Source: Acinetobacter colistiniresistens
GTDB taxonomy: Bacteria; Pseudomonadota; Gammaproteobacteria; Pseudomonadales; Moraxellaceae
DNA length: 64,000 nucleotides
Direction of reading: 5' to 3'
Assembly (NCBI RefSeq): GCF_024582815.1
Contig: NZ_CP102099.1
Coordinates: 1,736,001-1,800,000 of the forward strand
Shown: positions 9,119-41,323 of the stretch, piece after piece
How the letters are laid out: every line of letters begins with the position of its first letter
Numbering within the stretch: position 1 is the first letter of the stretch
Notes under the pieces: model-generated
What the model saw: only the letters and a program-made list of their open reading frames with translations
Database searches by the model: none
Told to the model about the DNA's origin: nothing
Translations under genes and position numbers: made by a program

Positions 9119-9601
9119 TTAGTGGTGGTGACCACCTGCACCATGAACATGGCCGTGATCTAATTCTTCTTGAGAAGCATCACGGATTTCAACGATTTCA
9201 ACTTCGAAAGTAAGATCTTGACCAGCAAGTGGGAAGTTCGCATCAACGATGATGTTGTCGCCTTCAATTGCTTTAACGGTTACGATTTGAACACCGTCAT
9301 CAGTTTGAGCTTGGAACTGCATACCTGGTTGGATGTTGTCCACGCCTTGGAACATTTGAGCTGGAACTTCTTGAACTAAGTCTGGGTTATATTCGCCATA
9401 ACCTTCAGCAGCTGGAACGTTTACAGTGAATTTTTCACCAACAGTTTTACCTGTAAGTGCATTTTCTAAACCAGGAATGATGTTGCCCGCGCCGTGCAAA
9501 TATGCAAGTGGTTCACCTTGAGATTGGTCAAGTGTTTCACCCTCAGCGTTTGTTAAAGTGTAGTGGAATGAAACCACGTGGTTATTTGCAATAGCAGTCA
9601 T
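9119..9601 (-). CDS. slyD: FKBP-type peptidyl-prolyl isomerase SlyD
   Basis: A 160-residue cytoplasmic prolyl isomerase and chaperone of the SlyD type. The FKBP core has DQSQGEPLAYLHGAG, IPGLENAL, NVPAAEGYGEYNPDL and the inserted IF chaperone flap (about residues 68-130), then the typical EVVEIR-like strand and a short His-rich tail (HGHVHGAGGHHH) that in SlyD binds Ni and other metals. The tail is shorter than in E. coli. A longer frame reaches 9622, but the start at 9601 is preferred: it has a GGA-containing ribosome site and matches the family N-terminus, whereas the longer form has none. Confidence 0.93.
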   Translation of the reverse strand: MTAIANNHVVSFHYTLTNAEGETLDQSQGEPLAYLHGAGNIIPGLENALTGKTVGEKFTVNVPAAEGYGEYNPDLVQEVPAQMFQGVDNIQPGMQFQAQTDDGVQIVTVKAIEGDNIIVDANFPLAGQDLTFEVEIVEIRDASQEELDHGHVHGAGGHHH

Positions 9602-32841: not shown

Positions 32842-33789
32842 ATGGAACAACTTAACTCATCTGATTTAAAAGCAATCTTACATTCTAAACGTGCCAATCT
32901 TTATTATTTAGAACATTGCCGGGTGATGCAAAAAGATGGGCGAGTGCTGTATCTCACCGAAGCAAAGAATGAAAACCAATACTGGAATATTCCCATTGCC
33001 AATACCACGGTGATTTTACTGGGTACAGGAACATCGATTACGCAGGCTGCGATGCGAATGTTGTGCAGCGCAGGAGTGTTGGTTGGTTTTTGTGGTGGTG
33101 GTGGCACGCCATTATTTGCTGGCAGTGAGGTGGAATGGTTAACGCCACAAAGTGAATATCGCCCAACTGAATATATGCAGGGCTGGATGAGCTTCTGGTT
33201 TGATGATGCCAAACGTTTAGATGTTGCAAAGCAATTTCAATTTGCTCGTATCGAATTTATCCGCAAAATTTGGGCTAGAGACAAAGATTTAAAGGATGAA
33301 GGTTTTTATCTGGATGATTTAGATATTCAGCAAGCTTTAGCTGGTTATGAAAAGAAAATTCCTAATATGGTCAAAGTGGGTGATTTACTCCTCGCCGAAG
33401 CGCAGATGACCAAGCAACTTTATAAAATTGCAGCAACTCGTTGTAAGTTGAGTTTTGAACGTAATCCAGAGCAAGGGGATTTAGCCAATGATTTTTTGAA
33501 TCATGGCAATTACTTAGCCTATGGCCTCAGTGCGACAACACTTTGGGTCTTAGGTATTAGTCATAGTTTTGCTGTGATGCATGGCAAAACCCGACGTGGT
33601 GCTTTGGTCTTCGATGTGGCTGATCTCATTAAGGATACGGTGGTTTTACCATGGGCGTTTATTTGTGCCAAAGAGGGGCTGACTGAGCAAGCGTTCCGTC
33701 AGCAGCTGTTGCAAAAATTCACAGAATATCGCTGTCTGGATTGGATGTTTGAGCAGGTGAAAGAGAAGGCTATGTTAAATTTAAAATAG
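32842..33789 (+). CDS. cas1: CRISPR-associated endonuclease Cas1, type I-F
   Basis: A 315-residue subtype I-F Cas1, the integrase that inserts new spacers into the array as a complex with the Cas2 part of the neighbouring Cas2-3 protein. I-F features are LKAILHSKRANLYYLEHCRV at the N-terminus, GTGTSITQAAMRMLCSAGVLVGFCGGGG and the C-terminal catalytic half with LLLAEAQMTKQLYK (Glu), SHSFAVMHGKTRRG (His) and LVFDVADLIKD (Asp). GAGGGA lies upstream of the ATG. It is separated from cas3 by 353 bases, unlike many I-F loci where the genes are close, and that gap holds the CreTA-like elements. Its stop codon overlaps the presumed guide target. Confidence 0.96.
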   Translation: MEQLNSSDLKAILHSKRANLYYLEHCRVMQKDGRVLYLTEAKNENQYWNIPIANTTVILLGTGTSITQAAMRMLCSAGVLVGFCGGGGTPLFAGSEVEWLTPQSEYRPTEYMQGWMSFWFDDAKRLDVAKQFQFARIEFIRKIWARDKDLKDEGFYLDDLDIQQALAGYEKKIPNMVKVGDLLLAEAQMTKQLYKIAATRCKLSFERNPEQGDLANDFLNHGNYLAYGLSATTLWVLGISHSFAVMHGKTRRGALVFDVADLIKDTVVLPWAFICAKEGLTEQAFRQQLLQKFTEYRCLDWMFEQVKEKAMLNLK

Positions 33790-33804
33790 ATACATCTAGT
33801 ATGG
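33788..33804 (-). promoter_or_regulatory. presumed CreA guide target with type I-F CC PAM
   Basis: On the minus strand this reads CC followed by ATACTAGATGTATCT, which is identical to the first 15 nt of the pseudo-spacer at 34022-34048. CC is the canonical type I-F PAM and lies on the correct (5') side of the protospacer, and the perfect match is in the seed. Beyond position 15 the match breaks down, which is expected to allow Cascade binding without Cas3 cleavage. The site overlaps the cas1 stop codon and a TAGTAT -10-like element and abuts TTGTTT, so binding would block transcription of the downstream ORF. These matches are visible in the sequence; the regulatory role is inferred. Confidence 0.8.
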
Positions 33805-33864
33805 TTGTTTTTATTTTTAATTGGTGTTATTTTGCTCAGTATCAATATGAGAGGAGATACACCT

Positions 33865-33975
33865 ATGTTCAAAAATAAGCTTTTTGTAGTATTTTTTATT
33901 TCATTGATATGGTCAGTGAATATTTCTGTGAATTTTAATCCAGAAATATATCTTGATTTTACATTTAGAAAATGA
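33865..33975 (+). CDS. creT: putative CreT toxin: 36-residue hydrophobic peptide
   Basis: A 36-codon ORF (too short for usual gene calling) between the guide target and the mini-CRISPR. It has a strong ribosome site (GAGGAG, 8 bases before ATG). The peptide begins MFKNKLF, has one hydrophobic stretch (residues 6-17, FVVFFISLIW) and ends DFTFRK, like membrane-active type I toxins. Codons include two AUA and one AGA. In CreTA modules the toxin gene sits exactly here. Some CreT toxins, including one reported from Acinetobacter type I-F, are said to act as small RNAs, so the transcript rather than the peptide could be the toxin. The promoter is not resolved (TAGTAT at 33797 or TTGTTT-N17-TATTTT at 33805-33833). 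Confidence 0.6.
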   Translation: MFKNKLFVVFFISLIWSVNISVNFNPEIYLDFTFRK

Positions 33976-33983
33976 GTTATGAG

Positions 33984-33989
33984 TATAAT
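33984..33989 (+). promoter_or_regulatory. consensus -10 box (TATAAT) of the presumed creA promoter
   Basis: A perfect TATAAT ends 4 bases before the first repeat-like hairpin, so transcription would begin near 33996 within the first pseudo-repeat, as expected for a crRNA-like RNA with its own promoter. No good -35 box is seen (TTTACA at 33958 is 20 bases away). Confidence 0.55.
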
Positions 33990-33993
33990 TAAT

Positions 33994-34076
33994 ACCAACT
34001 GTCACATAGACAGCTTAGAAAATACTAGATGTATCTTGGATATGTCTTTTTCACAGCCGCATAGGTTGTTTAGCAG
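33994..34076 (+). ncRNA. creA: CreA-like mini-CRISPR RNA (two pseudo-repeats and a 27-nt pseudo-spacer)
   Basis: Pseudo-repeat 1 (33994-34021) has stem CTGTC/GACAG, loop ACATA and handle CTTAGAAA. Pseudo-repeat 2 (34049-34076) has TTTCA, stem CAGCC/GGTTG (one G-T pair), loop GCATA and TTTAGCAG. Array repeats have GTTCA, stem TGGCG/CGCCA, loop GCATA and handle TTTAGAAA. The architecture (5-nt stem, 5-nt loop, 8-nt handle) is thus the same although stem bases differ in a paired manner, and Cas6f could process it. The 27-nt pseudo-spacer (array: 32) begins ATACTAGATGTATCT, which matches 33788-33802 next to a CC PAM. It would guide Cascade to repress creT. The structure is visible; expression and function are inferred. 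Confidence 0.82.
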
Positions 34077-34109
34077 GGCTAATATAAGTCTAAGACTTGT
34101 ATTAGCCCT
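34075..34109 (+). other. strong hairpin between pseudo-repeat 2 and cas3
   Basis: AGGGCTAATATAAGTC, loop TAA, GACTTGTATTAGCCCT: a 16-bp stem with one U-G pair. It begins at the last two bases of pseudo-repeat 2 and ends 33 bases before the cas3 start. It lacks a T run, so it may be an RNA end-stabilising structure, a factor-dependent terminator, an attenuator of cas3 or an operator. Confidence 0.65.
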
Positions 34110-34142: not shown

Positions 34143-37100
34143 ATGATCGTAACCTTTATCTCTCAGTGTGAAAAGAAAGCGATTGCTCGAACTCGTCGTG
34201 TGCTCGATGCTTTTGCAGATCGGATTGGTGATAACACATGGCAAACAGTGATCACTGAAGATGGATTGTTGGCGGTCAAAAAATTACTTAGAAAAACTGC
34301 GACGAAAAGTACAGCGGTTTCATGTCATTGGATACGTGGTCGTCGTAGAAATGAATTGATGTGGGTTGTAGGAAATCGTAATAAGTTTAATGAACAGGGG
34401 ATAGTCCCCGTAAATACCACAAAGAAAAGCTTGTCTCAAAATAAATGGGAAAATGACTGGCATTATTTACCATTAATCAAAGCATTAGTTGCTGTGTCTG
34501 CTTTACTGCATGATTGGGGTAAAGCAACGGTATTATTCCAGCAAAAATTACTTGATAAAAATAACCAATTTAAAGGTGATCCTTTACGTCATGAATGGAT
34601 TTCATGCCTATTATTAAATGCCTTGGTGCAATCATCAGGCAATATAGAGTCTGATGAGGTTTGGTTAAATCTATTTATTAATCAAAGTTGGGATGAGGAA
34701 CTTCTCCAGCAAATGATTGTAAAAAAATCAGATCAATCAAAAGTTTTAACTCAGCTTCCACCATTCGCTCAATTAGTTGCGTGGCTGATCATTTCACACC
34801 ATCGCTTACCTAATTTAAAAGATGATAAAGATTCAAAAAGGTATGCTGCTGAACCTGCAAATAGTATTACAGAATTATTTGAATGTATCGAAGCAAACTG
34901 GGGCTATCAAAATAAATTTCATGAAAAGGATTACCAGCAACGACTTAAATTATGTTTTCAGTTTGAGCAAGGCTTACTAAGCCAATCTACTGAATGGACA
35001 AAACAAATTAAAAAATGGTCATCACGGTTATTACAGGAAGCTCAAGTATCAGGACAGATTTTTATTGATGGTAGTTGGCGAGTGATTTTACATCATGCGC
35101 GCTTATGTCTAATGTTGGGGGATCATTATTATTCATCGTGTGAGGCGGATAAAACATGGAAAACGAGTTTATCACTCGTTGCAAATACAGATGCTAAGAC
35201 TAAGCAGGCCAAACAATTTTTGGATGAACATCTAGTTCGAGTCAGTGACAATGCTATGCGGATAGCTCAGTCTTTAAGTCGTTTAGCTGATGAGATGGAA
35301 TCTGCTTATAATATTCAAAAATTAAAAAAGAAAAGTCCATCAGGTTTTGAATGGCAGGATCAGGCTGCTAAAGGGATTCAGCAATTTATTCAAAAAAATG
35401 AAGGGGCTGAGAAACAGGGTTGGTTTATTGTCAATATAGCAAGTACAGGGAAAGGAAAAACCATTGCAAATGCGAAAATTATGCAAGCCTTATCTAAGGA
35501 CGGACAATCATTACGTTATATTTTAGCTCTAGGCTTAAGGACATTAACTTTACAAACAGGGGATTCATACCGTCATGATATTGGTTTAGGTAATGATGAG
35601 CTAGCTGTTTTAATTGGTTCAAAAGCTGTACAGGAGTTGCATCATCAAAATGCCAGAAATGATCAACAGGACAAATTAAATATCGAGGAAATCGGTTCAG
35701 AGTCATTAGAGGCGTTATTAGAGAATGAACTGGATTACGACACGATGCCCCAAGCCGATTTTATGAATGCTTTATTCCCTAAAAATCAAGAACAACGTAA
35801 TAAGGCATTTCTATATAAACCTGTTTTAGCTTGCACCATTGATCATATTATGGCAGCGACTGAAACCAAGCGTGGTGGCAAATATATTTTACCGAGCTTA
35901 AGACTTTCGTCCTCAGACTTGGTCATTGATGAAGTGGATGATTTTAATGCTCAAGACTTAGTTGCTATTGCTCGACTGGTGCATCTTGCAGGCATGTTGG
36001 GACGAAAAGTGATGATATCGTCAGCAACTATACCTCCAGCATTGGCTGAGGGATTTTTTAATGCCTATCAGCAAGGCTGGGCTTTGTACTCTGCCTTTAA
36101 AAAACTAAAAAATAAAAATATCGTTTCGATGTGGGTTGATGAGTTCAAAACAAAAATTCAAACCATTGATTCGAATACGCCAAAAGAGCTTATACAACAA
36201 TATCAAAATACACATGATCAATTTGTAGATCTTCGGACAGCAGTATTAGTTCAGCAAGTTGTGAAACATAAAGCCTATATTGTGCATTGTGCTGATCTTG
36301 TAGTCGAAAAAGAAGTTCAACGTTTAGATCAAAGCTTGCAGTCTCAATATTTTGGACGGATTCAGCAGAATGCTGAACAATTACATTTGAGTCATCACAG
36401 TATTGATCTTAAGACAGGTAAAAAAGTCTCTTTTGGTGTAGTGCGTGTTGCCAATATTCCACCTTGTATCGCTTTAACTCAATACTTACTCAATGCAGAA
36501 TGGTCACAGGGCATAGCGCCTCGTGTTATGGCATATCATAGTCGTCAAGTTCTGTTGCTACGTAGTGAGCAGGAACGGCATTTGGATCAGGTTTTAAAAC
36601 GTAAAGAAAAAGAAGGAGAGCAAGCAACCGCATTTTCAGATAATGTAATTCGCCAGCATTTAGATTCGATTGAAGATGAACATGTGATTTTTATTTTGGT
36701 TGCAACCCCAGTAGAGGAAGTTGGTCGAGACCATGATTTTGATTGGGCCATTGTAGAGCCATCATCTTATCGTTCGATTATTCAATTAGCAGGACGAGTG
36801 TTACGTCACAGAAAATTGGAGCAGAATATCGAAAAGCCAAATATTGCTTTAATGCAATATAATTTAAAAGGATTAAGAAAAGCTAAGGCTGCTTTTGAAA
36901 AGCCTGGTTTTGAACTTAATAATGATAAATTCCAATTACTCACGAAAGATTTAAAAGAATTACTCGATATTTCAGATGTGAGTTTTAATATTAATGCCAT
37001 ACCAAGAATAAAAAAGAATTGCCCATTACAAACAAGAAAAAGGCTAGCAGATCTTGAACATGCAGTAATGGCTGATGCGTTAACCTCATACGAAAAATTA

Positions 37101-37520
37101 GGAGCAAAACCATTAAATTCGTGGTTAACACAAAAATGGTTTTTAACTGCTTTACCGCAAAAAATTATACAATTTAGGCAAAGCTCTCCGAATATTCAGA
37201 TTTTTGCTGTTTGGAGAGATCATAAGCTGATACTCTGTGAAAAAAATGATTTTGGTCATTATATTGATCGGAGTAGTTTTTATAATATTGATTATTTGCA
37301 ATTAAATAATTTGGAACAAAAAAGATTATGGTTGAATAGGGATTATTACGACATTTTGTGTCGCTTGACCCTTGATCATTTAACTGGAAATGAAGAAGAT
37401 GTCGAAGCAAAGATTGAAAGGCTATCGGAACGTTATGGGGAGATTATGTTGCCTGAGTATGATGAGAATAAACGATTAATGTATTCAGAACAGTTTGGCT
37501 TGGTAGTTTCAAATAAATAA
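34143..37520 (+). CDS. cas3: CRISPR-associated Cas2-3 fusion nuclease-helicase, type I-F
   Basis: A 1125-residue protein combining adaptation and interference. The N-terminal about 95 residues are a Cas2 domain (MIVTFISQCEKKAIARTRRV). The HD nuclease follows with LLHDWGKA (His123, Asp124). Superfamily 2 helicase motifs are ASTGKGKT (Lys439), VIDEVDDF (Asp596), SSATIPPAL and, late in the protein, AGRVLRHRKLEQN. After Cascade finds a protospacer, it degrades the target strand; with Cas1 it integrates spacers. GAGG precedes the ATG by 10 bases. It is followed by cas8f after 15 bases, starting the operon cas3-cas8f-cas5f-cas7f-cas6f. Confidence 0.96.
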   Translation: MIVTFISQCEKKAIARTRRVLDAFADRIGDNTWQTVITEDGLLAVKKLLRKTATKSTAVSCHWIRGRRRNELMWVVGNRNKFNEQGIVPVNTTKKSLSQNKWENDWHYLPLIKALVAVSALLHDWGKATVLFQQKLLDKNNQFKGDPLRHEWISCLLLNALVQSSGNIESDEVWLNLFINQSWDEELLQQMIVKKSDQSKVLTQLPPFAQLVAWLIISHHRLPNLKDDKDSKRYAAEPANSITELFECIEANWGYQNKFHEKDYQQRLKLCFQFEQGLLSQSTEWTKQIKKWSSRLLQEAQVSGQIFIDGSWRVILHHARLCLMLGDHYYSSCEADKTWKTSLSLVANTDAKTKQAKQFLDEHLVRVSDNAMRIAQSLSRLADEMESAYNIQKLKKKSPSGFEWQDQAAKGIQQFIQKNEGAEKQGWFIVNIASTGKGKTIANAKIMQALSKDGQSLRYILALGLRTLTLQTGDSYRHDIGLGNDELAVLIGSKAVQELHHQNARNDQQDKLNIEEIGSESLEALLENELDYDTMPQADFMNALFPKNQEQRNKAFLYKPVLACTIDHIMAATETKRGGKYILPSLRLSSSDLVIDEVDDFNAQDLVAIARLVHLAGMLGRKVMISSATIPPALAEGFFNAYQQGWALYSAFKKLKNKNIVSMWVDEFKTKIQTIDSNTPKELIQQYQNTHDQFVDLRTAVLVQQVVKHKAYIVHCADLVVEKEVQRLDQSLQSQYFGRIQQNAEQLHLSHHSIDLKTGKKVSFGVVRVANIPPCIALTQYLLNAEWSQGIAPRVMAYHSRQVLLLRSEQERHLDQVLKRKEKEGEQATAFSDNVIRQHLDSIEDEHVIFILVATPVEEVGRDHDFDWAIVEPSSYRSIIQLAGRVLRHRKLEQNIEKPNIALMQYNLKGLRKAKAAFEKPGFELNNDKFQLLTKDLKELLDISDVSFNINAIPRIKKNCPLQTRKRLADLEHAVMADALTSYEKLGAKPLNSWLTQKWFLTALPQKIIQFRQSSPNIQIFAVWRDHKLILCEKNDFGHYIDRSSFYNIDYLQLNNLEQKRLWLNRDYYDILCRLTLDHLTGNEEDVEAKIERLSERYGEIMLPEYDENKRLMYSEQFGLVVSNK

Positions 37521-37535
37521 TAAGATGGAAAGGAT

Positions 37536-38786
37536 ATGGCAGAAAGTATTCATGCATTTTTAAATGAGCGTAAAGAGCTTTGGCTAAAAGATCGTTTAAA
37601 AAAAGCAGAAAGTGATGTTGAAACTTTAACTTTGCAACATCAGGCAGATAATAAATTTAGTTTAAATGAATGGTTACCTGATGCAGCAAAGCGTGTAACC
37701 CAGCTTGCAATGGTGAGCCACCCAAGTAAGTTTAGTCATCCAAGTGCCAAGACTTCAAGCCTTATTGCTAAGGCGAAACATTGTAATGATGGCTATTTAC
37801 GCAGTGGTAATGTGAACTATTCATTGGATGTATTTGGTAATGCTGCTGCAATGGATGTATTTAAGTTCTTATCTTTACCGCTTACTGAAAAAATGACGGT
37901 TTTGGATGGTTTCGAACAGGGTAATCAAGAGTTGCGAATTTTAATTACGCATGCAGGTTTAAATTTTGAAACATTGAGTTCAGAATTTTTAAAAATTAAA
38001 GCCGCAGACCATTCAGTAAAGACAGATCATTTAGTAAAACAGGTCTATTTCCCAATTGATCAATCTGAATATAATTTATTATCTATTTTAACTTCATCTG
38101 GTTTAATTACTCGACTCAAACAAGTCATTGATGCCATGCGTTTTTCGGAAGAAACCAAAAAAGCTAAAGAATTGCGTAAGAAAAATGAACATGATGAAAT
38201 TGGTTATGTGGACATACTTGATCTAACAATAACTGCGTATGGTGGAACTCAACCACAGAATGTTAGTGTTTTAAATAGCCAAAATGCGGGACGAGCTTAT
38301 TTACTGTCGAGTTGCCCACCAGTATTAGAAAAAAGAACGATTAGACTTCCTAAAACTGATTTTTTTATGCAGTGTTTATATCGAAGAAATTATCAAGACA
38401 GCTTTATTCAATTACATAGATTTATGCAGCTTGATCTAAATAATATGGATATTAGAAATGCGATAAAAAATATTATTCAATTTGTGATTGATCAAGTGTT
38501 ACTACAGGCATTAAAGACTAGACAATATGCAATTGAAGGGTGGACAAATCAAGATTATTACGCAAACTTACCGAAAATGCAGCGAATTTGGCTAGATAAA
38601 ACTTATCAAGTCGAGCGAGAAGAAAATAGTGACTGGCGTGACGAATTAAGCCGAGAAATAGCGCGTTGGATATTACGAAGTTATGAAAAAGTAATTAGTG
38701 ATGCTTATATGTTGGGAACAGTTGAGTTGGTTGAAGTTAAACAGCGTGTAGAAAGCTCATTACAACAAGCAAAGGAGTTTTTCTAA
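37536..38786 (+). CDS. cas8f: type I-F Cascade large subunit Cas8f (Csy1)
   Basis: A 416-residue Csy1 protein. It binds the crRNA 5' handle together with Cas5f and recognises the CC PAM. Family-like segments are AKHCNDGYLRSGNVNYSLDVFGNAAAMDVFKFL, GGTQPQNVSVLNSQNAGRAYLLSS (the conserved GGTxPQNVS motif) and the C-terminal EIARWILRSYEKVISDA. The stop codon shares one base with the cas5f start (TAATG), which couples translation. Confidence 0.94.
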   Translation: MAESIHAFLNERKELWLKDRLKKAESDVETLTLQHQADNKFSLNEWLPDAAKRVTQLAMVSHPSKFSHPSAKTSSLIAKAKHCNDGYLRSGNVNYSLDVFGNAAAMDVFKFLSLPLTEKMTVLDGFEQGNQELRILITHAGLNFETLSSEFLKIKAADHSVKTDHLVKQVYFPIDQSEYNLLSILTSSGLITRLKQVIDAMRFSEETKKAKELRKKNEHDEIGYVDILDLTITAYGGTQPQNVSVLNSQNAGRAYLLSSCPPVLEKRTIRLPKTDFFMQCLYRRNYQDSFIQLHRFMQLDLNNMDIRNAIKNIIQFVIDQVLLQALKTRQYAIEGWTNQDYYANLPKMQRIWLDKTYQVEREENSDWRDELSREIARWILRSYEKVISDAYMLGTVELVEVKQRVESSLQQAKEFF

Positions 38787-39670
38787 TGCGTCATTTTTTA
38801 TTGATTTCTCATTTAAAACTTCACAATGCCAATGCCATGAGTAGCCCATATACCATTGGATTTCCAGCAATGACAGCTTGGCTTGGCGCAGTCCACGCTT
38901 TGCAACGTAAATTACAAGCTAAATCATGTGATGTGGCTTTAACTAAAGTTGCGGTATGTTGTCATGAGTTTAATTTGCAAACCTATAAAGGACAGGGCGA
39001 TTTTGTCCATTCAATTATTGGTACCGCAAATCCATTGGATAAGGATGGAAGTCGCCCCGCTTTTATTGAGGAAGCCCGTTGCCATTTGGAAGTTTCACTT
39101 TTAGTTGAAATTGAAGATTTGAATAACAAAAAAAGAGAGCAATTGTTAGAACTTGCTTCTGAGCTAATTTGTAGTATGAAATTTGCAAGTGGAGATGTTC
39201 TTACACTGAAGAATTGTCAAATACTGGATTTTGATGAAGATGAAGATCATGACAAGGAATTAAAACCAATCCTCAATAAACTCATGCTTGGGCATGTACT
39301 GGTTGAGCGTCGTGATCTCGTAATAGACAGTATGAATCAAGGTAAGGATGCTTTAGATGCGCTTTTAGAATATTTACAAGTCACGCATAGCTCGAGTGTA
39401 GATGAAGATAACAAAGTGACATGGACATCAAAGCGGAAAGCTCAAGGTTGGCTCGTACCTGTCGCTGTTGGCTTTCAAGGAATTTCTGATTTGGGATTCG
39501 CAAAAAATCAAAGGGATGCCAATACACCACATCGGTTTGCCGAAAGTGTTTTAACTTTAGGTGAATTTTTGATGCCGTATCGCATAGAACATCTTGATCA
39601 AATGTTATGGCAATACCATTTTGATTCAGAAAACAATTTATATCTCTGCCAAAACGCTACAACAAATTAA
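38786..39670 (+). CDS. cas5f: type I-F Cascade subunit Cas5f (Csy2)
   Basis: A 294-residue RAMP-fold protein that caps the 5' end of the crRNA with Cas8f. Typical Csy2 sequence is FLLISHLKLHNANAMSSPYTIGFPAMTAWLGAVHALQRKL at the N-terminus and GWLVPVAVGFQGISDLGF and AESVLTLGEFLMPYRI near the C-terminus. It overlaps cas8f by one base and is followed by cas7f after 25 bases. Confidence 0.94.
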   Translation: MRHFLLISHLKLHNANAMSSPYTIGFPAMTAWLGAVHALQRKLQAKSCDVALTKVAVCCHEFNLQTYKGQGDFVHSIIGTANPLDKDGSRPAFIEEARCHLEVSLLVEIEDLNNKKREQLLELASELICSMKFASGDVLTLKNCQILDFDEDEDHDKELKPILNKLMLGHVLVERRDLVIDSMNQGKDALDALLEYLQVTHSSSVDEDNKVTWTSKRKAQGWLVPVAVGFQGISDLGFAKNQRDANTPHRFAESVLTLGEFLMPYRIEHLDQMLWQYHFDSENNLYLCQNATTN

Positions 39671-39695
39671 TTTGATATTGAAAAAGGAAAGACTC

Positions 39696-40709
39696 ATGGC
39701 TAAAAATGAAAAAACAGTCGCAAGTGTACTCGCATTTGAAAAGAAACTTGTTCCATCTGATGGATATTTTTATGGAATGACTTGGGATAATCGCAACGAA
39801 CAAACCGCTTTAAAACTTATTTCCAAATCAGTCCGAGGAACGATTTCAAACCGTTTAAAGCCTACTGTTGCCAGTGATCCATTGAAGTTGAATGCTGAAG
39901 TTGAAAAAGCCAATTTACAAACAGTAGATGTTTGTGCTTTGGGTGAGCATCAGGATACTTTAAAAGTTGGTTTTACTTTGAAAATATTAGGTGGTGTTGA
40001 AAATCCATCTGCTTGTAACAATGAAGCTTTTTTAAACTCTTATCAAGCCGTCGCAAAAAGTTATATTAACAAATATGGCTTTACAGAGCTTGCGAAGCGT
40101 TACGCGCTCAATATTGCCAATGCTCGTTTTTTATGGCGGAATCGTGTCGGTGCGGAAAAAGTAGAGGTTGTGATAACAATAAATGATCAACCTGCTATAA
40201 CATTTAATGCTTTGGACTATCCACTGCATGATTTTGACCATGTAGATGAAAAATTAAAAACATTGGCTGATCAAATCGCTCAGGCTCTAAAAGGTGACAC
40301 AGCATATTTATTAATTAAAGTTGAGGCTTATGCCTTGGTGGGTAAAGCGCAAGAGGTTTATCCAAGTGAAGAATTGGTTCTTGATAAAGGTAAGGGTGAT
40401 AAGAGTAAAATCCTCTATCAAGTTAATGATGTTGCTGCAATGCACTCTCAAAAAATTGGTAATGCACTACGTACAATTGATACTTGGTATCCTGAGTTTG
40501 ATGATAAAAAAACAGCAATCGCGATTGAACCTTATGGTGCGGTCACAAATCTTGGAAAAGCTTATCGTACTCCTAAAGAGAAAAAAGACTTTTTTACCTT
40601 ATTTGATAAATATGCTTTAGGTGAGCCGTTAGAAAATCTGGAGCAAGAACATTATGTTATGGCTGTTTTAGTGCGTGGTGGGGTATTTGGTCAAAGTGCG
40701 AAGGATTAA
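39696..40709 (+). CDS. cas7f: type I-F Cascade backbone subunit Cas7f (Csy3)
   Basis: A 337-residue Csy3 protein; six copies coat the spacer part of a standard crRNA. The start at 39696 (MAKNEKTVASVLAFEKKLVPSDGYFYGMTWDNR) has GGAAAG 6 bases upstream and fits the family; an open frame extends to 39594 within cas5f but lacks support. Other Csy3 segments are VKGTISNRLKP-like VRGTISNRLK, RYALNIANARFLWRNRVGAEKVEV and KAYRTPKEKKDFFTLFDKY. A shorter guide, such as the 27-nt one of the CreA-like RNA, would probably take fewer copies. Confidence 0.95.
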   Translation: MAKNEKTVASVLAFEKKLVPSDGYFYGMTWDNRNEQTALKLISKSVRGTISNRLKPTVASDPLKLNAEVEKANLQTVDVCALGEHQDTLKVGFTLKILGGVENPSACNNEAFLNSYQAVAKSYINKYGFTELAKRYALNIANARFLWRNRVGAEKVEVVITINDQPAITFNALDYPLHDFDHVDEKLKTLADQIAQALKGDTAYLLIKVEAYALVGKAQEVYPSEELVLDKGKGDKSKILYQVNDVAAMHSQKIGNALRTIDTWYPEFDDKKTAIAIEPYGAVTNLGKAYRTPKEKKDFFTLFDKYALGEPLENLEQEHYVMAVLVRGGVFGQSAKD

Positions 40710-40711
40710 TA

Positions 40712-41323
40712 ATGCAATATTATCAAGAAATCACTTTAATTGATCAGGATGAAATTTCACCTTATTTTATTTGGTCAAAAGTGTATACCCAACTCCATAT
40801 TGCTTTTGCAGAACATACAGATGATCAAGATAAGAGTCGCTTGGGTGTCTCTTTTCCTCAATATCGTATTAACCAGCAAAAGAATATTGGTTTTTTGGGT
40901 GCGAAAATTCGTATTTTTGCCAATACAGAAGTTGAGTTACAACAGCTTAATCTGGCGAAGTGGTTGGAACGGCTTGTGGACTATGTCCATTTCACTCAAC
41001 CACGTGAAGTACCTCAAGCTAAAATCACGGGTTACGCTCATTATTTTCGAGTTAATCCAAAGATGAATTTAGAAGAGCGTATTATTCATCAAGCACGGCG
41101 CCACAATATTTCATTGGATCAAGCGAGACAGCACTTTAAGGAATATATTGATCAGCCTGTAGTTGAGCCTTATGTGAGTTTAAAAAGTCTGAGTGCCAAG
41201 CGAGAAGAAAATATAGATCGACCATATCGCCTATATATTGGTAAATCTGTTGTCGATGAGGCAAAAGATGGAACATTTGGAACTTATGGGTTAAGTCGTT
41301 TCTCAACTGTACCAGAATTTTAA
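40712..41323 (+). CDS. cas6f: crRNA-processing endoribonuclease Cas6f (Csy4)
   Basis: A 203-residue Csy4 protein that cleaves the repeat hairpin and stays bound to the 3' end of the crRNA. Features are the N-terminal YYQEITLIDQDEISPYFIWSKVYTQLHIAF, with the catalytic-type His near residue 31, the arginine-rich helix region (IIHQARRHNISLDQARQHFKE) that grips the hairpin, and the C-terminal FGTYGLSRFSTVPEF. It should cut after the hairpin base A20 to leave an 8-nt handle UUUAGAAA. The gene ends 130 bases before the array. It must also process the CreA-like RNA if that RNA is functional. Confidence 0.95.
   Translation: MQYYQEITLIDQDEISPYFIWSKVYTQLHIAFAEHTDDQDKSRLGVSFPQYRINQQKNIGFLGAKIRIFANTEVELQQLNLAKWLERLVDYVHFTQPREVPQAKITGYAHYFRVNPKMNLEERIIHQARRHNISLDQARQHFKEYIDQPVVEPYVSLKSLSAKREENIDRPYRLYIGKSVVDEAKDGTFGTYGLSRFSTVPEF

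What the first reader, a model, noticed from the sequence alone, without database searches (positions are those of the whole stretch)
33788..34109. CreTA-like CRISPR-regulated toxin-antitoxin between cas1 and cas2-3
Seen: the 353-bp gap between cas1 and cas3 contains, in order, a guide-matching target with a CC PAM, a small ORF with a strong ribosome site, a consensus -10 box and a mini-CRISPR of two repeat-like hairpins around a 27-nt guide. Known: CreTA modules pair a toxin (CreT) with a crRNA-like antitoxin (CreA) that uses Cascade to silence the toxin; they were first described in a haloarchaeal type I-B locus, and to my knowledge one has been reported with Acinetobacter type I-F. Inferred: if an anti-CRISPR or a cas mutation disables Cascade, the toxin is released, so the module would guard this I-F system.
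Basis: partly seen in the sequence, partly recalled or inferred. Interest (0 to 1): 0.95.

Follow-up and report, generated by a model that had tools for sequence, protein, structure and literature searches.

The report
CRISPR-silenced toxin with viral guide mimics
Inside its CRISPR immune locus this Acinetobacter carries a tiny protein gene and a CRISPR-like guide that matches DNA beside the gene's predicted switch, so the CRISPR complex likely keeps a predicted toxin silent that would be released when a virus disables CRISPR, and several viral sequences carry the first part of that same guide.

Summary
The 353-bp gap between cas1 and cas2-3 of a complete type I-F locus holds a CC-flanked target, a predicted promoter directly after the PAM, a 36-aa ORF and a two-repeat mini-CRISPR whose guide matches the target over 15 nt (20,000 shuffles: at most 10). 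Of 51 measured genus loci, 43 have almost no gap and 8 carry a 343-504 bp insert, all 8 with this layout. Guide and target change together; mismatches concentrate at positions 6 and 12, bases that Cascade flips out (8 of 20 versus 2 of 130 elsewhere). Repeat decay follows the published creA pattern. The ORF is protein-coding (6 synonymous, 2 nonsynonymous changes against a 90% relative). Cargo is exchangeable: short hydrophobic peptide or DUF2188 protein.

It works like CreTA but differs from the published Acinetobacter module in place, orientation, ORF and target position. Toxicity and Csy-dependent repression are untested; CreR-like autoregulation of cas2-3 is the main rival.

Unexpected: eight IMG/VR viral contigs carry a mini-CRISPR with the first 14 nt of the window's guide, and a prophage carries nearly the guide of a sister species: predicted CreA mimics. 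New variant of a known kind.

The parts
32842..33789 (+). cas1 (Cas1f)
   Evidence: TIGR03637, E 1e-139
33788..33804 (-). predicted CreA target: 15-nt protospacer 33788-33802 plus CC PAM (33803-33804), overlapping the cas1 stop codon
   Evidence: 15-nt PAM-anchored match to the guide; only exact site in the genome for CCATACTNGATGTNTC
33805..33833 (+). predicted creT promoter: TTGTTT, 17 nt, TATTTT
   Evidence: same placement in 8 of 9 loci, shuffled mean 0.10; pattern chosen after seeing the sequences; not called by the generic scan
33865..33975 (+). 36-aa ORF with hydrophobic N-terminal half, predicted CreT toxin; ribosome site AGAGGAGA at 33850-33857
   Evidence: 6 synonymous vs 2 nonsynonymous changes against L269; second codon positions conserved among four types; hydropathy maximum 2.4 over 15 residues
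33984..33989 (+). TATAAT, predicted -10 box of creA
   Evidence: read; TATAAT also present in the three other 36-aa inserts L014, L017, L038; not called by the generic scan
33994..34021 (+). psiR1, degenerate repeat (hairpin CTGTC-ACATA-GACAG, handle CTTAGAAA)
   Evidence: handle 7/8 and stem part 7/20 identical to the own repeat; fold
34022..34048 (+). guide (psiS, 27 nt), first 15 nt match the target
34049..34076 (+). psiR2, degenerate repeat (hairpin CAGCC-GCATA-GGTTG)
   Evidence: stem part 12/20, handle 6/8 identical to the own repeat; fold
34075..34109 (+). 16-bp hairpin, predicted terminator separating creTA from cas2-3
   Evidence: terminator-like scan: 2 sites found, 0.1 expected; a long hairpin at this place in 8 of 8 inserts
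34143..37520 (+). cas2-3 (Cas3f)
   Evidence: TIGR02562, E 4e-272
37536..41323 (+). csy1, csy2, csy3, csy4: the effector genes on which the module would depend
   Evidence: TIGR02564, TIGR02565, TIGR02566, TIGR02563
41454..43042 (+). CRISPR array, 28-nt repeat GTTCATGGCGGCATACGCCATTTAGAAA

Best explanation
Between cas1 and cas2-3 of a complete type I-F locus lies a cassette in which a two-repeat mini-CRISPR carries a guide that matches a CC-flanked site abutting a predicted promoter of a conserved 36-aa hydrophobic ORF, and this guide RNA is predicted to lead the Csy complex to shut off that likely toxin, so that loss or inhibition of Csy would release it. Predicted steps: Csy4 cuts the two degenerate repeats (inferred from the hairpins and the conserved 8-nt handle); Csy1-3 assemble on this CreA RNA (inferred); the complex pairs with about 15 nt next to the PAM, likely too few for Cas3 cleavage, and keeps RNA polymerase off the -35 box (inferred from position); when an anti-CRISPR, an RNA decoy or a csy mutation removes the complex, the peptide is made and likely arrests or kills the cell (inferred). 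What is shown is the anatomy, its conservation, the co-variation of guide and target, and protein-level selection on the ORF.
For: 15-nt PAM-anchored match, shuffles at most 10 of 20,000. 8 of 51 genus junctions carry an insert and 8 of 8 have the layout. Guides match their own targets at 14-17 of 17 positions, other families' targets at 4-10; co-changes at positions 4, 9, 10, 15. Mismatches in positions 1-15: 7 of 18 at positions 6/12 versus 2 of 117 elsewhere; 8 of 20 versus 2 of 130 with L269. psiR1 keeps handle, psiR2 keeps stem, as published for creA. ORF under purifying selection. Hairpin after psiR2 in 8 of 8. Translated small CreT with a promoter-overlapping target is established in Citrobacter rodentium. 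Viral sequences carry the same guide between repeat hairpins, as expected if phages meet this module.
Against: No toxicity, RNA or repression data. The window's psiR2 matches the array repeat at only 12 of 20 stem-part positions, so processing by this Csy4 is uncertain. Promoters are not called by a generic scan. With a strict run score the matches of L014 (12 of 300 shuffled guides as good) and L019 (1 of 300) are weaker. DUF2188 is a widespread family (314 plasmid records), not a known toxin. The toxin-less L130 shows that a mini-CRISPR can occupy this junction without any ORF.
Confidence: 0.75

Rival explanations
1. CreR-like autoregulation: the guide RNA with Csy represses the promoter after cas1 mainly to hold down cas2-3 and csy expression; the small ORF is a leader or bystander.
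For: PcreT and cas2-3 point the same way, and the insert separates cas1 from cas2-3, which abut in 43 of 51 loci. L130 has target, promoter, mini-CRISPR and then cas3, with no ORF and no comparable hairpin. CreR is described for I-B, I-E and V-A (PMC13131331 passage).
Against: In the window the ORF is conserved as protein and a terminator-like hairpin lies before cas2-3; 8 of 8 genus inserts have an ORF and a hairpin. Two unrelated cargo types at one place fit a payload better than a leader.
Confidence: 0.12
2. The cargo is regulated by Csy and CreA but is not a toxin: a defence or stress protein switched on when CRISPR is blocked.
For: DUF2188 is widespread and uncharacterised and is listed as a candidate defence gene, PDC-S16. 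No known toxin family matches the peptide.
Against: Small hydrophobic peptides are common as toxins (recalled); the C. rodentium CreT is a translated 96-bp ORF that arrests growth; classical toxin genes occupy the same junction in distant I-F loci.
Confidence: 0.1
3. CreT acts as an RNA, as in Acinetobacter WCHA45, and the ORF is only a translation-start decoy.
For: The WCHA45 CreT works through its RNA although it has a conserved mini-ORF.
Against: 6 of 8 changes against L269 are synonymous, whereas synonymous changes of codons 2, 3 or 5 abolish WCHA45 toxicity; second codon positions are the conserved ones among four types, although the frame +1 control of pN/pS there was not discriminating.
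Confidence: 0.05
4. A decaying remnant without function in this strain, because its repeats no longer fit the local Csy4.
For: psiRs are poor matches to the window's own repeat.
Against: The exact match of guide and target, purifying selection on the ORF, and the unchanged stretch from creA -10 box through psiR1 to the guide's 14th base against a 90% relative.
Confidence: 0.03

Closest known systems
CreTA of Acinetobacter sp. WCHA45, LoGeW2-3 and ANC3789, type I-F (PMC10097628; Results parts 1-3, Discussion and one Methods section read)
   Same: Genus, I-F effector, two degenerate repeats around a short guide, CC PAM, partial match to a nearby target, small ORF with ribosome site.
   Different: There the module lies in the cas3-csy1 gap, creA and creT are divergent, the target lies after the creT start site, and CreT is a 33-bp mini-ORF acting as RNA. 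Here it lies between cas1 and cas2-3, in one orientation, the target abuts the -35 box, and the ORF is a conserved 36-aa protein.
Cascade-repressed toxin of Citrobacter rodentium, type I-E (PMC12055562, one section read)
   Same: Small ORF (96 bp) that must be translated to be toxic; target overlaps the upstream part of the promoter.
   Different: Type I-E, cas3-casA gap, creA on the opposite strand; no sequence relation was tested here.
CrePA (protein toxin with KilA-N domain, CreA RNA; known here only from the review PMC12737573, one section read)
   Same: Protein cargo repressed by a CRISPR effector through a crRNA-like RNA.
   Different: No KilA-N or other Pfam domain in the 36-aa peptide; the alternative cargo is DUF2188.
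CreR, cas-regulating RNA (PMC12737573 passages; PMC13131331 passage)
   Same: crRNA-like RNA with a partial match to a promoter inside the cas locus; L130 looks like this.
   Different: In the window a conserved ORF and a hairpin lie between the promoter and cas2-3.
RNA anti-CRISPRs, Racrs (PMC10651486, passages seen) and phage mini-arrays (Shmakov et al. 2023, not held; recalled)
   Same: Repeat-like RNAs in prophages and viruses that engage Cas proteins.
   Different: The viral elements found here have two repeat hairpins around a guide that matches a creT promoter; Racrs are described as solitary repeats.

Membership tests
CreTA | crRNA-like gene with two degenerate repeats beside a type I cas locus, psiR1 keeping the handle and psiR2 the stem | tested here: met
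   published pattern
CreTA | partial, PAM-adjacent match of the guide to the promoter region of a nearby small gene | tested here: met
   the promoter itself is predicted (one search does not call it)
CreTA | effector-dependent repression of that gene | not testable with these tools
   needs reporter or RNA data
CreTA | the repressed product is toxic | not testable with these tools
   needs an expression test
CreTA | toxin acts as an RNA (archaeal and WCHA45 modules) | tested here: inconclusive
   protein-level selection argues against it; a translated CreT exists in C. rodentium
CreTA of the WCHA45 type | cas3-csy1 gap, divergent creA, 33-bp mini-ORF | tested here: not met
   cas1-cas3 gap, one orientation, 36-aa ORF; cas3-csy1 gap is 15 nt by ORF ends
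CrePA | KilA-N protein toxin | tested here: not met
   no Pfam match for the peptides; DUF2188 in the other cargo
CreR | no toxin gene; guide targets the promoter of the cas operon | tested here: inconclusive
   a conserved ORF and a hairpin argue against it in the window; transcription of cas2-3 untested; L130 fits it

The most novel reading that the evidence does not exclude
Acinetobacter prophages carry stolen antitoxins against this guard. Eight IMG/VR contigs have a mini-CRISPR whose first 14 guide nt equal the window's CreA guide, and a prophage in another Acinetobacter carries nearly the guide of the A. puyangensis module. Loaded into Csy with a short guide, such an RNA would occupy the immune complex and still silence the creT promoter: an RNA anti-CRISPR that does not trip the alarm. 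Each creT promoter type would then select for its own phage mimic, and the swapping of cargo and guide at the cas1-cas3 junction would be the host's answer.
Probability: 0.4. Interest if true: 0.95.

Novelty: new variant of a known kind. Interest (0 to 1): 0.78.

Why it matters
CreTA modules are hard to find because they are short and poorly conserved. This one gives a recognisable slot (the cas1-cas3 junction of I-F loci), a computable signature (mismatches at flipped bases 6 and 12, handle-keeping psiR1, stem-keeping psiR2) and a set of genus loci with exchangeable cargo, so that guard function can be tested directly. If the cargo is toxic, CRISPR guard modules would have interchangeable protein payloads. 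If the viral mini-CRISPRs act as CreA mimics, they would show that phages meet these guards in nature and how they get past them.

Tried and rejected
Rejected: filing it as the published Acinetobacter CreTA (place, orientation and ORF differ); chance match.

Led nowhere or counted against the reading: Rfam gave no match in the window. The 36-aa peptide had no match in plasmids at E 0.1; in the genus only the four inserts score E 3e-19 or better, and the next hits start at E 3e-4; of these I looked at five and saw no repeat handle nearby. Six more distant DUF2188 relatives in the genus lie elsewhere, with no convincing psiR (handle-like words without a hairpin in L186 and L187). DUF2188 is common on plasmids (314 records), so that cargo need not be a toxin. 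No viral copy of the DUF2188-type or L035-type guide. A first, longer viral pattern found nothing. Three of the 11 viral hits of the successful pattern lack the hairpin and are taken as chance. Viral mini-CRISPRs with guide ATYAAACTTAGTTT have no convincing target in what I hold. The looser genus pattern (3 mismatches) gave 7 hits in its backwards control, so I rely on the exact pattern, which gave 5 hits and none in the control. Frame-shift controls of pN/pS among the four distant peptide types were not discriminating in frame +1; the protein claim rests on second codon positions and on the close pair. Insertion borders could not be defined: pairwise alignments of occupied and empty junctions were ambiguous.

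Rows dropped: of the Cas1 hits in 83 of 175 genomes, split or partial genes were not fetched; of 70 loci had a measurable cas1-cas3 junction; 17 loci of a 43-46% identical Cas1 lineage gave no Cas3 N-terminal hit, and L022 and L049 gave none either. The 51 loci with both gaps measured include a few double records of one genome (for example L038 and L095).
Full report
WHAT IS THERE. The window is G000:C1:1736001-1800000 of a 3.9-Mb genome; the closest named Cas1 relatives are Acinetobacter. cas1, cas2-3, csy1-csy4 and an array of the 28-nt repeat GTTCATGGCGGCATACGCCATTTAGAAA form a complete type I-F locus. The 353-bp cas1-cas3 gap holds, on the plus strand: target 33788-33802 and GG 33803-33804, predicted promoter 33805-33833, ribosome site 33850-33857, 36-aa ORF 33865-33975, TATAAT 33984-33989, psiR1 33994-34021, guide 34022-34048, psiR2 34049-34076, hairpin 34075-34109.

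IS IT CHANCE? The guide matches the target over 15 contiguous nt from the PAM; 20,000 dinucleotide shuffles gave at most 10. In the own genome CCATACTNGATGTNTC has one exact site, this target.

RELATIVES. Cas1 relatives were found in 83 of 175 genus genomes. Of 51 loci with a measurable junction, 43 have a gap of 20 nt or less and 8 have 343-504 bp. All 8 show the same series: target, PAM, promoter-like boxes, ORF, psiR1, guide, psiR2, hairpin. Five are named by their contigs: A. junii CIP 64.5 (L004), A. tjernbergiae (L014), A. puyangensis (L017), Acinetobacter sp. MB5 (L019), A. chengduensis (L038); L016 and L035 are unnamed, and L001 is the window itself. Two more relatives, 90.5% identical over the insert, are in records filed as Acinetobacter phage MD-2021a; the stretches carry cas genes and look bacterial. 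Among the 80 best of 365 Cas1 relatives in named genomes, Ignatzschineria sp. F8392 (L130) also has a guide-target pair at this junction.

GUIDE AND TARGET EVOLVE TOGETHER. Over the first 17 nt each of nine guides matches its own target at 14-17 positions; across guide families the score is 4-10, but within a family guides cross-match (13-17), so the test is strong only between families. Positions 4, 9, 10 and 15 changed on both sides within families. Mismatches in positions 1-15 concentrate on 6 and 12, bases that type I effectors flip out of the duplex (recalled): 7 of 18 cells against 2 of 117 elsewhere, p 7e-6, and 8 of 20 against 2 of 130 with L269, p 9e-7. L269 differs from the window within the 15-nt target only at position 12. 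The loci are related and some share a guide, so these p-values are optimistic. Against: by a strict run score, 12 of 300 shuffled guides did as well as L014 and 1 of 300 as well as L019, because each has one mismatch at another position.

REPEATS. psiR1 keeps the handle (CTTAGAAA in 9 of 9) and little of the stem sequence; psiR2 keeps more of the stem and less of the handle, except in L017. This is the pattern published for haloarchaeal creA. In the window psiR2 agrees with the array repeat at 12 of 20 stem-part positions only, so processing by the local Csy4 needs a test.

PROMOTER GEOMETRY. In 8 of 9 loci a TTG-N3-N17-TANNNT pair of boxes begins 0-1 nt after the PAM (shuffled mean 0.10, maximum 3); L035 has TGG. 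I chose the pattern after seeing the sequences, and a generic scan calls neither promoter in the window. If right, Csy would sit against the -35 box, unlike WCHA45, where the target lies downstream of the start site, and like C. rodentium, where it overlaps the UP element.

CARGO. Five inserts carry a short hydrophobic peptide (36 aa in L001, L014, L017, L038; 39 aa in L035) and three a 75-aa DUF2188 protein. Window against L269: 6 synonymous and 2 nonsynonymous changes, pN/pS 0.08, p 6e-4. DUF2188 cargo: pN/pS 0.17-0.24 in three pairs and a match to the PADLOC candidate PDC-S16 at E 1e-37; the family is widespread. On a Cas3 N-terminal tree of 56 rows the insert needs 7 changes, 6 of them forced by starred branches; L015 (no insert) and L017 (peptide) are nearly identical, and L014 (peptide) and L016 (DUF2188) pair with support 89 (quick tree, warnings on long branches). 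L035 shares the 3' hairpin sequence with L016 and L019 but has another ORF. The cassette is thus gained, lost and re-armed.

CREA WITHOUT TOXIN. In L130 the promoter after the target leads straight into psiR1, with no ORF and no comparable hairpin before cas3. This looks like CreR and makes autoregulation the main rival. In the window the ORF and the hairpin argue for a unit of its own, but expression of cas2-3 is untested.

OTHER LINEAGE. Of 51 loci with both gaps measured (a few are double records), 24 have a cas3-csy1 gap above 150 nt; 23 of these have a cas1-cas3 gap of 23 nt or less, and the exception, L136, has a GNAT-TacA pair at the junction. Guide-target pairs on the opposite strand after cas3, as published, were found in L036, L113, L117 and L133 (cas3-csy1) and in L131, where csy1 was not located.

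VIRAL COPIES OF THE GUIDE. A pattern for the handle plus the peptide-type guide hit 11 viral contigs. Eight have psiR1 (stem CTGTC/GACAG as in the window), guide ATACTAGATGTATC, psiR2 and a terminator-like hairpin; three lack the repeat hairpin. The pattern asked for the guide but not for the hairpins. The eight are 99% alike over 181 nt, so they are few independent events. psiR1 plus guide agree with the window at 36 of 41 nt. In L252 the neighbours include an endolysin and an integrase, and a flanking gene that I read as icd is 98% identical to a genus genome; L251 looks alike by eye; the other six were not examined further. In 1.97 Mb of CRISPR loci held, the only PAM-flanked site with at least 11 of 12 non-flipped matches to this guide is the window's creT promoter (L269 and L270 were not in that set); the viral pieces held contain no target (best 8 of 12). 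In the genus the exact pattern gave 5 hits in 175 genomes, four of them inserts and one a prophage of G034, with none in the backwards control. That prophage (holin and endolysin families) has a mini-CRISPR whose guide matches the A. puyangensis target at 15 of 15 non-flipped positions and the A. tjernbergiae target at 14; 3 of 100,000 shuffled guides did as well against the nine targets, not corrected for the search that found it. G034 itself has no site within two mismatches that begins with the PAM. Transfer in either direction would explain the likeness; that phages keep it to silence creT is inference.

LITERATURE. Read: PMC10097628 (Results parts 1-3, Discussion, one Methods section), PMC12055562 (one section and passages), PMC12737573 (one section and passages), PMC8501985 and PMC9458426 (outline and one section each), passages of PMC10651486 and PMC13131331. 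Shmakov et al. 2023 and Shu et al. are not held; what I say of them is recalled or from reviews. In the held library, searches listed no paper that by title or opening of the abstract describes a cas1-cas3 CreTA or a phage copy of CreA; papers outside the library may exist.

VERDICT. Observation confirmed; the CreTA-like reading is supported by comparison; toxicity and guard function are untested. New variant of a known kind, with a lead on phage counter-measures that is more surprising than the module itself.

Noticed in passing
L251 near 11427, L252 near 9672, L253, L254, L255, L258, L260, L261 (IMG/VR contigs): Viral mini-CRISPR with the first 14 nt of the window's CreA guide between two repeat hairpins and a terminator-like hairpin.
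   Followed up: partly
L233 (G034:C45) near 9400; same element in L191 and L211: Prophage mini-CRISPR whose guide matches the creT target of A. puyangensis at 15 of 15 non-flipped positions.
   Followed up: partly
L247, L248, L249, L250 and L234: A second family of viral and prophage mini-CRISPRs with guide ATYAAACTTAGTTT, of unknown target; in L230 and L234 it lies beside a small gene.
   Followed up: partly
L130 (Ignatzschineria sp. F8392), cas1-cas3 junction: Mini-CRISPR with target and promoter but no ORF and no comparable hairpin before cas3: a likely CreR-type form at the same junction.
   Followed up: partly
L122, L136, L142, L144, L146, L148, cas1-cas3 junctions: In distant I-F loci the same junction holds PIN/VapB (L122, L144), GNAT/TacA (L136), PIN/MazE-like (L142), RhuM (L146) or an unknown 122-aa gene (L148): it may be a general docking site for toxin genes.
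   Followed up: partly
G000:C1:2969943-2970849 (outside the window): A second array in the same genome, repeat GTTCATGACGGCATACGTCATTTAGAAA, with a compensatory change in the stem; the genome has one cas1 match only.
   Followed up: no
L049 and L087, end of cas1: cas1 runs straight into repeat units (L049) or a repeat-like end (L087), with no cas3 or csy hit in the stretch held, as if the interference genes were deleted by recombination.
   Followed up: no
CAKLQF020000007.1 and CAKLQH020000006.1 (L269, L270): Contigs filed as Acinetobacter phage MD-2021a look like bacterial chromosome with a I-F locus and the creTA insert, in which no gene is annotated.
   Followed up: partly
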